From Prevotella sp. (GTDB lineage: Bacteria; Bacteroidota; Bacteroidia; Bacteroidales; Bacteroidaceae), in assembly GCA_017443345.1 (NCBI GenBank), contig JAFSNR010000027.1, forward strand, positions 1 through 64,000: 64,000 bases of DNA. Reading direction: 5' to 3'. This document shows positions 357 to 13,742 of this stretch, one piece after another. Both the position numbers and the translations under genes were made by a program. Every line of letters begins with the position of its first letter. The stretch's first letter is position 1. The notes under the pieces are model-generated. The model was not told the origin of the DNA. It did no database searches and saw only the letters and a program-made list of their open reading frames with translations.

Positions 357-1169
357 TTATTGAGTAATTTTTTCATATTCTTGAATTCGTTGTTTTCATT
401 TTTGACTTACAGGTTTTCAGAGCCTGTTGACTGTACTAATGTATAGTTCCATTCGAACTTGTGCTTCGTAGGAATATTTTAAGTCATCTATTGAATAAGT
501 ATTCATAATACATTCTTCAACTCATTTTATAAATTCTTCTGGTGGTAAGTCAGATAGTCAACAATTTTTTATTTTATTTAATGAAATTTCGGTTTTTTGG
601 TTGAGCTCTTTTATTTTTTTTCAAATTTCTCTTGCAGCCATTTTTCATACAACTCGTTTAGTGTCTTCTCAATATTCGTTGTCTGGGGTTTTAATTGATT
701 CATTATTTAAAAATCTTTTTTCATTAGTTAATCAATCTAGCGCATAAAGTGCTGTTGTAATAATTTCTTTTTCCGTCCTAATTTTTGGTTTAAATTCTGG
801 ATCGTTAATAGTTTCACCAAGAATAATATTGAAAATATTTTTAACACTATTACTTTTGAGCTGTTTTCCTAGTTTTACTAGTTTACTAAGGTAATCTCAA
901 TATTCTGGATAATAGACATTCCATTTTTGATCAATAAGTGTTAAGTAGTCAGTAATTTTTAGTTTTTCTACTTCCTCTATTGATAGACTATTTTCCATTC
1001 AATATGTGTTTTCGATATTTGTGGTGTTTATTTCGTTGTTAATTGGTTTATTTTCAGCAGCTTGTGTTCATAATGTTAATAATAAAGATCCTGCAATAAT
1101 TCAATTTCTTAATGTTTTTTTAGGAGATTTACTTTCTTTCTTAACAGAAGAATTTACATGATTATTCAT
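357..1169 (-). CDS. Hypothetical secreted protein, open only with UGA read as an amino acid (probably Gly)
   Basis: From ATG at 1169 to TAA at 357 the frame has 270 codons. Twelve are TGA (first bases at 1103, 1070, 1001, 899, 734, 671, 647, 623, 560, 524, 419, 398), and none is an internal TAA or TAG in spite of the AT-rich sequence. Read as glycine (code 25, used by Absconditabacteria/SR1 and Gracilibacteria) the protein has 15 Gly and one Trp (TGG at 923). Read as Trp (code 4) it would have 13 Trp, an unlikely share. Residues about 16-36 form a signal peptide (basic start, hydrophobic core, TQAA near the cleavage site), and Gly suits that core better than Trp. The rest is charged, helix-rich and unrecognised. 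A terminator follows. The segment may be foreign DNA or a mis-joined contig end. Under the standard code it would not be called. Confidence 0.6.
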
Positions 1170-1747
1170 GATTGTATTAACGAACCAAGGCAATGACAAA
1201 ACTCAGCAACCTCTTTGGCAGGGTGCTGACGAGTATATGATATGTGATGAATAATTACTGCCTAATGGCTTGCCTGTTCAATGCATATACTTATTCTGTT
1301 CGTTTTTATGGAGTGCCCAGACTTCACATGTTGACTGACTTCCGAAGGTGAGGAGTGAGGCCAATAGTGTGTGGGGAGACGACCGTTTACCATGTGCCTA
1401 TCTATGGGCGACAGCCATGCACACTTGCCTCCATATCCCTATGCAGCTTAATAGCACACGCTTTCTTCATCGGAACCACTTGAGGTGGCTCCTCGCCCTT
1501 GCACCGTCTCCCGCCTGCCTTTCCTTTGCTGGCGCACAGGGCTGTGAACGCAGATAAACGCTACCCCCTGCCGCGGCTTCTTTTGGTCTGTCAGCGAGTC
1601 AAAGAACTCGGTTAATACTTTTATTGTGGGCAAAGATAGGGAAAATTCCGCAAACTTCCAAATAATTTGGTGATTATTTGGTATATTCGTCCACGAAACG
1701 ACAAAAACGACGTCTCGCGGACAAATAAATGCCATTTTGTTTGGTGG
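1170..1747. other. Gene-free stretch between the UGA-rich frame and the ATPase
   Basis: No convincing gene is seen in 1170-1747. Base composition shifts from AT-rich near 1190 to balanced or GC-rich at 1350-1600. The short frames here (plus strand from 1348; minus strand from 1735) have no recognisable domain. Imperfect inverted copies of GTCCACGAAAC occur near 1690-1725. Where the recoded segment ends and host DNA starts cannot be fixed by eye. Confidence 0.4.
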
Positions 1748-1787
1748 TATTCGAAATTTGTTGTATATTTGCAGTGGATTTCGAATA
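1748..1787 (+). promoter_or_regulatory. Promoter of the ATPase gene inside a 10-bp inverted repeat
   Basis: TATTCGAAAT (1748-1757) and ATTTCGAATA (1778-1787) form a perfect inverted repeat with centres 30 bases apart. Between them lies the -7 box TATATTTG (1764-1771). The gene's ATG is at 1798. An inverted repeat flanking the core promoter is the usual layout of an operator for a dimeric repressor, so the gene is probably repressed, perhaps by its own product or an unseen regulator. Confidence 0.55.
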
Positions 1788-1797
1788 GAAGGCCGTT

Positions 1798-3066
1798 ATG
1801 GATGAATACGTAAAAAGGGATGTCTATCTCAATCGCCTGATTGTCAGAAGAGATAATAACCTGATTAAAGCAGTCACAGGACCGCGTCGTGCAGGTAAAT
1901 CTTTCCTTCTGAATCCTATATTCAAGGATTACCTTTTAGGACAAGGTGTCCCTGAAGACCATATCATCAGTATCTCATTCGATATTGAGGATGAGGACAC
2001 CCCACAGGAACTGCTCGATCGTGAAAAACTAAAGGAGTATCTTTATTCACGCATCACCTCCAAAACAGAACCTTATTATGTATTCCTCGATGAAATCCAG
2101 GAAGTAGATGACTTTGAACGCATTGTCAACGGACTGAATAACAAGTCCAATGTCGATGTATATATCACTGGCAGTAATTCCAAATTCCTCTCCAACGAAA
2201 TCAACACCATCTTCAGAGGACGCAGTGATGAAGTGAACATCATGCCATTCACTTTCAAGGAGTTCTGCCAGGGCAGGACAGAATCCGACAACGAATTGTG
2301 GAAAGAGTATTATACCTACGGCGGACTTCCGGCACTTCGCAGGATGCCGACTCCAGAGCAGAAGACCACCTATCTGCAACGTCTCTGGAAGAAGACTTAT
2401 CTCGACGATGTGGTAGAAAGGCATCATGTGGAAAACCGTGATGCATTGGAGGCTATTGCCGATGCCCTGTGCTCTTCTGTCGGCTCGCTCACCAACACAA
2501 CACGCATCACCAACACACTGGCAAGCGTCAGAAAGATTAAGATTACCGACGATACCGTCGCCAAGTATATCAGTTACCTTGAAGAAGCATTCCTGTTCAA
2601 CGAAGCCAGACGATTCAATATCAAAGGTAATAAGTATTACGAAAACATCAAGAAGTATTATTCGGTTGATGTCGGGCTGAGAAACGCTCGTCTGAATTAC
2701 AGGCAACTGGAACAAACTCACCTGATGGAGAATGTCATCTTCAACGAGTTGTTACATCGAGGCTACGCTGTTGATGTCGGTGTGATTGAGATAAGAGAAA
2801 TGAAAAACGGGAAATCGGAATACAAGCAGTATGAAGTGGATTTTGTAGCCGCTAACGGAAATGAGAAGTACTATATCCAATCAGCCTACGAACTCTCTAC
2901 TGAGACAAAGCGGGAACAGGAACTCAAATCCCTGAAGCGGATAGACGATTCTTTCCAAAAGATTGTAATCGTCAAGGATGACATCATGCCTTATCGTGAC
3001 GAAAAAGGAATCTACTATACGGGCTTATTCCAATTCCTTACCAACAATAATGACATGCGGGTGTAG
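1798..3066 (+). CDS. AAA-family ATPase with DUF4143-type C-terminal domain
   Basis: The 422-residue protein starts with an ATPase domain: Walker A GPRRAGKS near residue 28, Walker B YYVFLDEIQ near residue 93 and a sensor-like YITGSNS near residue 122. The C-terminal half fits the DUF4143/PD-(D/E)XK-like domain of this common family (EVDFVAANGNEKYYIQ near residue 350). Such ATPases are widespread in Bacteroidales, often in several copies and often near mobile or foreign DNA; their role is unknown. The last codons (CGG GTG TAG) lie inside the 5' end of the tRNA gene at 3057, a 10-base overlap, so the gene may have been inserted directly upstream of the tRNAs. Confidence 0.85.
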   Translation: MDEYVKRDVYLNRLIVRRDNNLIKAVTGPRRAGKSFLLNPIFKDYLLGQGVPEDHIISISFDIEDEDTPQELLDREKLKEYLYSRITSKTEPYYVFLDEIQEVDDFERIVNGLNNKSNVDVYITGSNSKFLSNEINTIFRGRSDEVNIMPFTFKEFCQGRTESDNELWKEYYTYGGLPALRRMPTPEQKTTYLQRLWKKTYLDDVVERHHVENRDALEAIADALCSSVGSLTNTTRITNTLASVRKIKITDDTVAKYISYLEEAFLFNEARRFNIKGNKYYENIKKYYSVDVGLRNARLNYRQLEQTHLMENVIFNELLHRGYAVDVGVIEIREMKNGKSEYKQYEVDFVAANGNEKYYIQSAYELSTETKREQELKSLKRIDDSFQKIVIVKDDIMPYRDEKGIYYTGLFQFLTNNNDMRV

Positions 3067-3149
3067 TGTAATGGCAGCACGCAAGACTTCAGATCTTGAT
3101 TCGGCGTACCTCCAGTGCGCAGGCGCGGGTTCGATTCCCGTCACCCGCT
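3057..3149 (+). tRNA. Unusual 93-nt tRNA: Gly-like body, two anticodon-like arms (UCA and UCC)
   Basis: Acceptor GCGGGTG/CACCCGC (3057-3063/3142-3148) with U73, a 4-bp D stem (3066-3080) and a 5-bp T arm (3125-3141, loop TTCGATT) match bacterial tRNA-Gly. Between D and T arms lie two 5-bp/7-nt hairpins. Arm 1 (3082-3098, loop CTTCAGA) gives anticodon UCA, which reads UGA. Arm 2 (3104-3120, loop CCTCCAG) contains UCC and is followed by a normal 4-nt variable loop. It can thus be read as a long-variable-arm tRNA for UGA, or as tRNA-Gly(UCC) with an extra arm between D and anticodon arms. Arm 1 keeps U33; arm 2 has C33. It is not a classic SelC: the D stem is 4 bp, not 6, and no sel genes are present. 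CCA is not encoded. Confidence 0.7.
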
Positions 3150-3167
3150 CGAAGAAAATTGAAATTT

Positions 3168-3258
3168 GCGGGCATAGTGTAAAGGTAGCACACAGGCTTT
3201 CGGGGCCTGAATGTCGGCTTCCAATCCGATAGTGGGGGTTCGAGTCCTCCTGCCCGTG
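3168..3258 (+). tRNA. Second unusual 91-nt tRNA: Gly-like body, two anticodon-like arms (UCG and UCC)
   Basis: It lies 18 bases after the first odd tRNA and has the same architecture with different arm sequences. Acceptor GCGGGCA/TGCCCGT (3168-3174/3251-3257, one G-U pair), D arm 3177-3191, T arm 3234-3250. Arm 1 (3193-3209, stem CAGGC/GCCTG, loop TTTCGGG) gives anticodon UCG, which would read CGA. Arm 2 (3213-3230, stem GTCGG/CCGAT) has an 8-nt loop CTTCCAAT containing UCC. The discriminator is G, unlike the U of tRNA-Gly. Arm stems differ from those of the first gene yet still pair, so both arms appear to be kept by selection. It could be a suppressor-type tRNA, a regulatory tRNA-like RNA or a decoy. 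Confidence 0.65.
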
Positions 3259-3268
3259 CAGACAAACG

Positions 3269-4270
3269 ATGGAAGAAGAGCAACTTCAGCAACAACAGCC
3301 TAAGGCGAAGGACAATTTCAGGCGGTGGGACGATCCGCTATTCGAGGACCTTCGCAGGATGTTCTCGCGTGCCAAACTGCGTGAGGTGTTGACGCACAGT
3401 TCCTTCTATGAACAGGAGGAACGGGGCAACAGCCGTTATGTGTTTGCAGGGATGTTTGTGTTCAAGGGGCAGGTGGCTGAGGTGCTGTTCCGCTATGCCG
3501 CAGGCGAGGGCACACGGCTGCAGCATATCCTGGGCAACCTGTTTCGCAACGAGCGATTGGAACGGCAATTCGATGAGTGGCGGCTGTGGCAGTTTGCCCG
3601 TGGCGGCGAGAAGTTCGACATCAAGTCGCACAAGCACATCTTCGTCTATGCCATCTACGGCTATGTATCGACCCTCGACGAGGACCTGCGCCAGTGGTTC
3701 ATCTCCAAATATATAATAGGTGAGGCCGAACACCTGCTGAGTCACCGCAGGCGCAACCGTAACCTGTTGGCACAGGCCGACGATATAGTCCGCAAGACCG
3801 ACGGCAGGCGACTGACGATGGAGATGGAGCAGACGGCAGAGGGGCTGCACTGCGCTAAAGCGATGCTATCTGACGGTACGCTGCTCTGTGAGGCAGAGAG
3901 CAAGAGCTGGCGCTACGCCCGTCAGAAGGTCATGAAACTGGCTCTCGACATTCTGGCTATGCCCTCGCGCAAATATATCCTCTCCAATCCGGAATATCAG
4001 GCCCGTGTGCTGGCACGTATGGAAGCAGAAAAGGCTAAGCGCAGGGCAGAGATAGAGGCGCGCGATGCAGCCAAGGAAGAGCAGCGTGCCCTGAAGAAGG
4101 AACAGCGCAAGGCCGAGGCGCGAGTCCGCGATGCCAAACGGCGCAAGAGTCAGGCCGAGGCGAAGATCCGCAAGGCAGAGAATGCCCGTCGTGCTGCCAT
4201 CAAGGCCGCCAAGGAGTCGCGCCCCATGAGTGCCAAGAAGCGCCGGTTCTTAGAAGACAAGAAGAAATAA
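3269..4270 (+). CDS. RNase III-like protein lacking catalytic residues, with dsRNA-binding domain and basic tail
   Basis: A 333-residue protein starting 10 bases after the second odd tRNA. Residues about 35-75 align with the RNase III signature: LREVLTHSS matches the start, but the NERLEFLGD core reads NSRYVFAGM, so both Glu and the Asp are lost. The second motif (GDTFEALIGAIYLD in the family) reads KHIFVYAIYGYVSTLD, losing the other Asp and Glu. Residues about 190-235 (LLCEAESKSWRYARQKVMKLAL) resemble the C-terminal half of a dsRNA-binding domain. The last 90 residues are a Lys/Arg/Glu/Ala-rich helix, likely a coiled coil or RNA-binding tail. It probably binds structured RNA without cutting it; the tRNAs next door are the obvious candidates. 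The RNase III assignment is by motif only. Confidence 0.6.
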   Translation: MEEEQLQQQQPKAKDNFRRWDDPLFEDLRRMFSRAKLREVLTHSSFYEQEERGNSRYVFAGMFVFKGQVAEVLFRYAAGEGTRLQHILGNLFRNERLERQFDEWRLWQFARGGEKFDIKSHKHIFVYAIYGYVSTLDEDLRQWFISKYIIGEAEHLLSHRRRNRNLLAQADDIVRKTDGRRLTMEMEQTAEGLHCAKAMLSDGTLLCEAESKSWRYARQKVMKLALDILAMPSRKYILSNPEYQARVLARMEAEKAKRRAEIEARDAAKEEQRALKKEQRKAEARVRDAKRRKSQAEAKIRKAENARRAAIKAAKESRPMSAKKRRFLEDKKK

Positions 4271-13671: not shown

Positions 13672-13742
13672 TGGACGATGGTGTAATGGTAACACTACAG
13701 GTTTTGGTTCTGTCATTCCCGGTTCGAATCCGAGTCGTCCAA
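13672..13742 (+). tRNA. tRNA-Gln(UUG)
   Basis: Normal cloverleaf: acceptor TGGACGA/TCGTCCA, D arm GTGT...ACAC, anticodon stem ACAGG/TCTGT with loop TTTTGGT (anticodon TTG), T loop TTCGAAT. CCA is not encoded. It has its own promoter and a terminator close behind. Confidence 0.93.

What the first reader, a model, noticed from the sequence alone, without database searches (positions are those of the whole stretch)
3057..3258. Tandem tRNA genes, each with two anticodon-like arms
Seen: both genes have Gly-like acceptor, D and T arms, but two 5-bp hairpins in place of one anticodon arm. First arms carry UCA and UCG; second arms both carry UCC. Stems differ between the genes yet all pair, which argues for selection on both arms. 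One reading gives long-variable-arm tRNAs that decode UGA and CGA; the other gives tRNA-Gly(UCC) with an inserted arm. The second gene also has an 8-nt loop in its second arm. I know of no described tRNA family with this layout. It could be a suppressor, a switchable tRNA, or a regulatory decoy.
Basis: partly seen in the sequence, partly recalled or inferred. Interest (0 to 1): 0.93.

Follow-up and report, generated by a model that had tools for sequence, protein, structure and literature searches.

The report
Second genetic code for marked genes
Some rumen and related bacteria appear to carry a small module, made of odd tRNAs, a disabled RNase III-like protein and a structured mRNA leader, that lets marked genes be read in a different genetic code from the rest of the genome.

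Summary
The two odd tRNAs are real, and they look like the decoding half of a gene-restricted second genetic code. A scan with the neighbouring RNase III-like protein (window 3269-4270, catalytic residues replaced) gave 29 further loci, titled mostly Bacteroidales or Prevotella; each has such tRNAs beside it. First arms read UCA, UCG or, in four loci, CCG. The second arm is a covarying long variable arm whose loop holds UCCA. Acceptors split cleanly: UCA has Gly identity, UCG/CCG Trp identity. Genes near the tRNAs carry in-frame TGA where homologues mostly have Gly, and CGA often where they have Trp. The RNase III-like gene uses CGA as Arg and stops at TGA in 8 of 28 intact copies, so two codes sit in one locus. 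Recoded genes of unrelated families share a new ~300-nt structured leader and a UGA at codon 3-5 (25 of 25). UGA=Gly and CGA=Trp equal the Absconditabacteria code; CGG=Trp is unproven here. Assignments and association are well supported; that leader, protein and UCCA arm confine the code to marked mRNAs is inferred. Seven literature searches listed nothing like it.

The parts
3057..3149 (+). tRNA with long variable arm, anticodon UCA (3089-3091), Gly-type acceptor (G1:C72, C2:G71, G3:C70, U73); variable arm 3104-3120 with loop holding UCCA; proposed to read UGA as Gly
   Evidence: codon use of recoded genes
3168..3258 (+). tRNA with long variable arm, anticodon UCG (3200-3202), Trp-type acceptor (G1:U72, C2:G71, G3:C70, G73); variable arm 3212-3231 with loop CUUCCAAU; proposed to read CGA as Trp
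   Evidence: codon use
3269..4270 (+). RNase III-like protein with catalytic residues replaced (motif recalled), weak dsRNA-binding-like region and basic tail (..SAKKRRFLEDKKK); such tRNAs lie beside it in 30 of 30 loci (in L078 only a cut copy)
   Evidence: Pfam Ribonucleas_3_3 E 1.6e-4, below cut-off; alignment of 26; PDB profile hit RNase III 3n3w E 0.017; loci
1287..1630 (-). conserved structured leader RNA upstream of the recoded gene; core 1545-1563
   Evidence: one exact copy of the core in the genome
1631..1662 (-). promoter-like TTTG ... TATCTTTG (Bacteroidetes type, consensus recalled)
   Evidence: sequence; a box of the loose form T...TTTG was found before 19 of 20 leaders, not before L098, whose contig ends there
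357..1286 (-). recoded secreted-type gene, 309 codons, ATG 1286-1284, gate TGA 1280-1278 (codon 3), 14 TGA, 3 CGA, stop TAA 359-357
   Evidence: weak homologue start in L087
1798..3066 (+). neighbour, probably not part of the system: AAA_14/DUF4143 ATPase whose stop overlaps the first tRNA by 10 bases

Best explanation
The tRNA pair belongs to a portable module that gives certain genes their own genetic code inside a standard-code bacterium. tRNA(UCA), with Gly identity, reads UGA as Gly. tRNA(UCG), with Trp identity, reads CGA as Trp; some loci add tRNA(CCG), presumably for CGG. The first recoded gene of a locus is transcribed behind a ~300-nt structured leader and has a UGA within its first five codons, so ordinary ribosomes would stop at once. 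Proposed mechanism: the dead RNase III-like protein binds the leader and the variable arms (constant UCCA loop, perhaps kissing the constant GGGA loop of the leader) and concentrates these charged tRNAs on leader-bearing mRNAs. They then outcompete RF2 and tRNA-Arg there and not elsewhere. Shown by sequence: UGA at Gly sites and CGA at Trp sites, linkage, leader structure, gate UGA, ordinary code in neighbouring genes. Inferred: charging by GlyRS and TrpRS, protein-RNA contacts, selective delivery.
For: tRNA(UCA) in 29 of 30 loci with the RNase III-like gene (the other is cut by its contig end), tRNA(UCG) in 25, tRNA(CCG) in 4. Masked-codon test on 24 recoded ORFs from 18 loci: TGA falls in 230 conserved columns, 150 Gly, 22 Ser, 58 other; CGA in 18, 7 Trp, 1 Arg, 10 other; controls TGG 92 of 108 Trp, CGT 20 of 36 Arg. 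In 32 homologue pairs (genes recur among pairs), codons facing TGA: TGA 418 (each such pair counted from both sides), Gly 246 of which GGA 128, against AGA 1, CGA 2, TTA 2, TGC 1, TGT 0, TGG 8, TCA 12; facing CGA: Trp 24, CGA 12, Leu 9, Arg 5. 16 CGA codons sit in five columns where Trp is the commonest sense residue, 15 of them in loci with tRNA(UCG). A profile search that reads through every stop lists 470 TGA, 1 TAG, 1 TAA in 38 matches (summed by hand). Same loci, companion gene: CGA 58 Arg and 14 Lys of 81, Trp not among the four commonest; CGG 123 Arg of 155; TGA ends 8 of 28 intact copies. 129 other genes: 37 TGA stops; CGA not avoided in the companion gene, 104 seen, 107.7 expected. 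RF2 over cut-off in 24 of 30 genomes. Leader: 61 pairs, 33 with double changes, 0 of 500 shuffles reach it, before proteins without detectable similarity. Early UGA 25 of 25.
Against: No expression, charging or protein data. 80 of 230 conserved TGA columns are not Gly. Only 7 of 18 conserved CGA columns are Trp. CGG is unresolved: of 10 codons two fall in Arg columns, both in L092, which shows no tRNA(CCG); one in L093, which has it, falls in a Tyr column. Five loci (L081, L087, L088, L091, L092) show no tRNA(UCG) in the fetched stretch, yet L081 has one CGA at a Trp column. The leader core was not found within one mismatch in G086, G416, G419, G433 and G435; the G374 hit is not a leader. Downstream recoded genes of L076, L080, L091 and L100 lack a leader of their own, and alternatively coded genes in L095 and L101 lie outside any leader transcript that I can draw. 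Leader-tRNA pairing would be three bases and both sides are constant, so covariation cannot test it. GC3 correlates with TGA share (rho -0.76), so foreign origin or plain base bias could shape TGA use.
Confidence: 0.78

Rival explanations
1. Conditional whole-cell code switch: the tRNAs are made only in some cells or moments, then change the code everywhere; the leader is only an expression switch for the cargo.
For: Leaders follow promoter-like boxes; an early UGA in 25 of 25 genes would gate expression on tRNA supply. Needs no selective delivery.
Against: The companion gene, which should be expressed with the tRNAs, uses CGA as Arg at the normal rate and stops at TGA in 8 of 28 intact copies. 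Up to 35 in-frame TGA per gene (L093) would need efficient reading, hence strong damage to other proteins.
Confidence: 0.25
2. Landing site for foreign DNA: the module lets Bacteroidales express genes captured from Absconditabacteria, which use the same code; recoded genes are imports that drift to the standard code.
For: Same code, UGA=Gly and CGA/CGG=Trp (PMC8629427 passages). AT-rich cargo holds most TGA, GC3 correlation -0.76; window gene GC 0.29 beside RNase III-like 0.57. Alternatively coded peptidyl-tRNA hydrolase, IF-2 fragment, UDG-, GNAT-, DUF3800-type genes at L101 and L095; that hydrolase is only 32-42% identical to other copies in five Bacteroidales genomes.
Against: Main cargo has Bacteroidetes-style lipoprotein starts (my reading). 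No Absconditabacteria genome could be searched; the cargo family gave one 26-bit match in 393 Bacteroidales genomes and none in phages, plasmids or viral contigs. Compatible with the main explanation as its evolutionary purpose.
Confidence: 0.4
3. Assembly chimera or misbinned Absconditabacteria contigs.
For: Most loci are metagenome-assembled; L101 and L095 carry housekeeping-like genes in the other code.
Against: 30 loci with shared parts; window contig of 111 kb with TGA stops in 9 of 36 long genes of the window; the record titled Prevotella sp. tf2-5 (L087), not marked as a MAG, has tRNA, RNase III-like gene, leader and a start MY-UGA-K.
Confidence: 0.03
4. Decayed genes and decoy tRNAs without translation function.
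For: A third, degenerate tRNA copy in L043; frame breaks in the RNase III-like gene of L074/L102, L097 and L098.
Against: TGA to GGA exchange at aligned sites, near absence of TAA and TAG, clean acceptor identities, covarying arms.
Confidence: 0.05

Closest known systems
Absconditabacteria/Gracilibacteria genetic code (NCBI table 25; CGA/CGG=Trp in Absconditabacteria)
   Same: UGA=Gly and CGA=Trp; same acceptor identity rules for tRNA(UCA) and tRNA(UCG/CCG) (PMC8629427 passages)
   Different: There the code is genome-wide; here it is limited to a few genes in standard-code Bacteroidales, the tRNAs have long variable arms, and a protein and leader RNA accompany them
Selenocysteine system (tRNA-Sec, SelB, SECIS; SECIS recalled)
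   Same: Special tRNA with long variable arm reads UGA in genes marked by an RNA structure, with a dedicated protein
   Different: Standard amino acids, two or three codons including a sense codon, up to 35 UGA per gene, leader at the 5' end, RNase III-like partner in place of SelB
Phage code-switching with suppressor tRNAs
   Same: Host keeps the standard code while some genes use stop codons as sense (PMC10746230 passages)
   Different: Not found in the phage or viral sets searched; gene marked by leader; sense codon reassigned
allo-tRNA and selC* tRNA-Cys
   Same: Bacterial tRNAs with longer variable arm, some selC* with UCA anticodon (PMC7609411 passages)
   Different: Those have a longer acceptor stem; these are 7+5 bp with Gly or Trp acceptors
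nematode nev-tRNAs (recalled, no call)
   Same: tRNA-Gly-like genes with a long variable arm
   Different: Eukaryotic, charged with Leu, no codon reassignment shown

Membership tests
tRNA | Covariance match and paired acceptor, D, anticodon and T arms | tested here: met
   62.0 and 52.6 bits against cut-off 29; acceptor 99.7%, D 99.4%, anticodon 98.3%, T 98.7% of cells paired
Absconditabacteria-type tRNA-Gly(UCA) | G1:C72, C2:G71, G3:C70, U73 with UCA | tested here: met
   G1:C72 and U73 in 19 of 19 distinct UCA genes; C2:G71 and G3:C70 read by eye from the alignment; rule
Absconditabacteria-type tRNA-Trp(UCG/CCG) | G73, no A20, A/G1:U72 as support | tested here: met
   G73 in 24 of 24 distinct UCG/CCG genes, A/G1:U72 in 23 (L078 is cut); base 20 read by eye as C or U, but A in the CCG gene of L093, and D-loop insertions in L074 and L101 make numbering uncertain
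Absconditabacteria code | CGG read as Trp | tested here: inconclusive
   10 codons only
tRNA-Sec | Acceptor plus T arm of 13 bp and G73 | tested here: not met
   7+5 bp, U73 in the UCA class; 13 bp and G73 from PMC7609411 passages
tRNA-Gly(UCC) with inserted arm | Gly acceptor whenever the UCC arm is present | tested here: not met
   UCG/CCG genes have the UCC loop with G73 and R1:U72
RNase III | Catalytic acidic residues (motif recalled) | tested here: not met
   ERLEFLGD region reads SRYVFAGM in the window
RNase III fold | Profile similarity | tested here: inconclusive
   Pfam 22-29 bits under cut-off 35; PDB E 0.017; structure prediction was off
Sec-type recoding | selA, selB, selD, SECIS | not tested
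   no search run
Known RNA family for the leader | Rfam match | tested here: not met
   window 1200-1800: two matches only up to E 10, best E 0.78 and far below cut-off

The most novel reading that the evidence does not exclude
A natural, mobile orthogonal translation module: cis-marked mRNAs are read in the Absconditabacteria code (UGA=Gly, CGA and CGG=Trp) inside standard-code Bacteroidales, with dedicated tRNAs delivered by a pseudo-RNase III and a leader RNA through the UCCA arm, so one cell runs two genetic codes at once.
Probability: 0.55. Interest if true: 0.98.

Novelty: categorically new. Interest (0 to 1): 0.95.

Why it matters
Genetic codes are thought to belong to genomes, apart from single-codon exceptions such as selenocysteine. 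Here at least one stop and one sense codon seem reassigned together in marked genes only, while neighbouring genes keep the normal meaning. That would make it testable how a cell can run two codes, would offer a natural blueprint for mRNA-specific recoding, and may explain how genes pass between Absconditabacteria and other bacteria. It also means that gene finding by the standard code misses or fragments these genes.

Tried and rejected
Sec-like or allo-tRNA: rejected on acceptor/T length and acceptor identity. Phage or plasmid origin: no match for the cargo in phages, plasmids and viral contigs, none for the companion protein in viral contigs, none for the leader in plasmids; the leader was not searched in phages. 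Four viral pattern hits of the leader core carried no leader features, tRNA, companion gene or cargo; phage and plasmid matches cover 2-4% of the query, all at the tRNA. Local sequence context as a UGA signal: single-base frequencies around 382 TGA codons show only A/T-rich third positions. DNA search with one tRNA in 40 relatives found the gene itself in the window's genome and partial matches in three others. Genome results are samples: 295, 393, 393 and 395 genomes; the weaker matches are tRNA-Leu and tRNA-Gly in the five loci that I looked at (L044-L048).

Limits of counting: L104 (49 residues, no tRNA) was dropped, so 29 of 30 scan loci plus the window make the 30 loci. L043/L099 and L074/L102 have identical tRNAs and seem to be the same loci in two sources; both were counted in the 64 tRNA matches (44 distinct), and their genomes twice among the 31. 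In one search columns with fewer than four unmasked residues were dropped. Recoded ORFs were delimited by TAA/TAG, so their lack of TAA/TAG is by construction; and the Markov test are the checks. The start codon was picked by a pattern that asks for an early TGA; the alignment then shows ATG and TGA constant in 20 of 20. L149 and L155 pattern hits had no leader features and were dropped; most two-mismatch hits were not examined. One search counted reading frames of L097 and L098 that are broken, and its figure of nine TGA ends includes L097. The structure counted was derived from the same alignment. Literature listings were capped (20 of 48 papers, 10 of 486).

Full report
What is there. ARAGORN and Rfam find two tRNAs at 3057-3149 and 3168-3258. 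Each has an extra hairpin between anticodon and T arms. Ten bases after the second lies a gene (3269-4270) that resembles RNase III weakly (Pfam 22 bits, under its cut-off).

A conserved locus. A covariance model of the two genes and a search with the protein found the same arrangement in two other Bacteroidales families. A scan of the genome collection by protein gave 30 loci; one, L104, is a 49-residue fragment and was dropped. In the remaining 29 plus the window, tRNA(UCA) is present in 29 of 30 (L078 is cut by its contig end), tRNA(UCG) in 25 and tRNA(CCG) in 4. The module is sparse: the protein is in 3 of 393 genomes of the order and 1 of 395 of the phylum, the window's own.

The tRNAs. 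Of 64 matches 44 are distinct: 19 UCA, 20 UCG, 4 CCG and one degenerate copy. All UCA genes have G1:C72 and U73; all UCG and CCG genes have G73 and, where not cut, G or A1:U72. The ordinary tRNA-Gly(UCC) and tRNA-Trp of L041 have acceptor ends of the same kind. The rules used in print for Gly-type tRNA(UCA) and Trp-type tRNA(UCG/CCG) are met, with one A20 exception in L093 (PMC8629427, passages). Second-arm stems covary, while the loop always holds UCCA. Since Trp-type genes carry it too, it is not simply a Gly anticodon.

Recoded genes. Neighbouring genes in many loci make sense only if TGA is read through. With TGA, CGA and CGG masked, 24 such ORFs from 18 loci were aligned. TGA falls in 230 conserved columns, of which 150 are Gly, 22 Ser and 58 other. 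CGA falls in 18, of which 7 are Trp, 1 Arg and 10 other. CGG has 10 codons and stays unresolved. Among 32 homologue pairs the codon facing TGA is TGA 418 times (such pairs counted from both sides) and a Gly codon 246 times. The one-base neighbour GGA occurs 128 times, AGA 1, CGA 2, TTA 2, TGC 1, TGT 0, TGG 8, TCA 12. CGA faces Trp 24 times, CGA 12, Leu 9, Arg 5; genes recur among the pairs. Sixteen CGA codons lie in five columns where Trp is the commonest sense residue; 15 are in loci with tRNA(UCG), one in L081 without it in the fetched stretch. In L092, without tRNA(CCG), two of three CGG codons fall in Arg columns. A profile search of 31 genomes that reads through all stops gave matches in 20; the 38 listed matches hold 470 TGA, 1 TAG and 1 TAA (my sum). 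The other 11 genomes, and the window's, lack this cargo family.

Two codes in one locus. In 30 companion genes, CGA is Arg in 58 and Lys in 14 of 81 conserved columns, Trp not among the four commonest; CGG is Arg in 123 of 155. Of 28 copies with an intact end 8 stop at TGA; L097 and L098 have broken frames. Among 129 other long genes in the loci 37 end in TGA, and CGA is not avoided in the companion gene (104 seen, 107.7 expected). In the window 9 of 36 long genes end in TGA. RF2 is over its cut-off in 24 of 30 genomes, the window's included.

The window's own recoded gene. On the minus strand, 1286 to 357, 309 codons hold 14 TGA, 6 GGN, 3 CGA and 2 TGG, with no TAA or TAG before the final TAA; its G+C is 0.29 against 0.57 in the companion gene. 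In 5000 Markov sequences of the same composition none lacks TAA and TAG. It has a signal-like start and a weak homologue start in L087 (E 1.4e-4 over 98 residues). For this gene the meaning of TGA rests on the leader and on the evidence from other loci, not on its own alignment.

The leader. Upstream regions of recoded genes whose proteins show no similarity are 75-79% identical over about 320 bases (window against L098, L100 and L077). Twenty leaders align. RNAalifold predicts 61 pairs, 33 with compensatory changes; no shuffle of 500 reaches any of five measures and slid versions fall far below, though the structure comes from the same alignment. No Rfam family matches. A hairpin with loop GGGA is constant in 20 of 20 and kept, with another stem, in the divergent L101 leader. 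After the leader, 25 of 25 genes have an ATG followed by TGA at codon 3 (19), 4 (4) or 5 (2). The leader core occurs once without mismatch in the window's genome, in the window. It was not found within one mismatch in five of 30 genomes, and the G374 and one G442 hit are not leaders.

Mechanism. Assignments and linkage are shown by comparison. I infer that the leader marks mRNAs, that the dead RNase III-like protein binds leader and variable arms, and that this concentrates the tRNAs where wanted. UCC of the arm can pair with GGA of the leader's GGGA loop, but only three bases are involved and both sides are constant. A transient whole-cell switch is the main rival; normal CGA and TGA use in the co-located companion gene speaks against it.

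Origin. The code equals that of Absconditabacteria for UGA and CGA. AT-rich recoded genes hold most TGA (Spearman -0.76 over 35 genes). L101 and L095 hold further alternatively coded genes, among them a peptidyl-tRNA hydrolase (Pfam E 2e-60), an IF-2 piece, UDG-, GNAT- and DUF3800-type genes. The hydrolase is 32-42% identical to other copies in five Bacteroidales genomes. Capture from Absconditabacteria is plausible, but I could not search their genomes. The cargo family gave one match, of 26 bits, in 393 Bacteroidales genomes.

Literature. Searches listed no report of such tRNAs, leader or two-code loci; only open-licence papers are held and listings were capped. I saw passages of PMC7609411 (with its outline), PMC8629427 and PMC10746230, and other papers only in search listings.

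Noticed in passing
L084 2600-3043 and 7342-7785: The island is flanked by a partial copy of release factor 1 (148 aa) and a second copy, 94% identical and on the same strand, as if it had inserted at prfA.
   Followed up: partly
L101 4034-4561 and 4648-5337 (minus): Peptidyl-tRNA hydrolase with 8 in-frame TGA and an IF-2 C-terminal piece with 2, on a contig with uvrC- and tsaE-like genes (my naming) almost free of in-frame TGA.
   Followed up: partly
L095 185-2854: UDG-, GNAT-, DUF3800- and weakly M16-like genes with TGA as Gly, one on the strand opposite to the leader transcript.
   Followed up: partly
L074/L102, L097 and L098, RNase III-like gene: The reading frame breaks at a run of six A near the N terminus (L074), near the C terminus (L097) and after 120 codons (L098); error or decay cannot be told apart.
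   Followed up: partly
L043 416-506: Third, degenerate copy of the odd tRNA with broken pairs.
   Followed up: no
L040 1501-1541: A lone 41-base match (88%) to the 5' half of tRNA(UCA) in another genome of the order, without a full tRNA.
   Followed up: no
L091, L092: Loci without tRNA(UCG) or tRNA(CCG) in the fetched stretch: one of five CGA codons of L091 and two of three CGG codons of L092 fall in Arg columns and none in a Trp column, as if tRNA content and codon meaning vary together.
   Followed up: partly
window 13672-13742: The window's tRNA-Gln has nearly the same D arm as the odd tRNAs.
   Followed up: no
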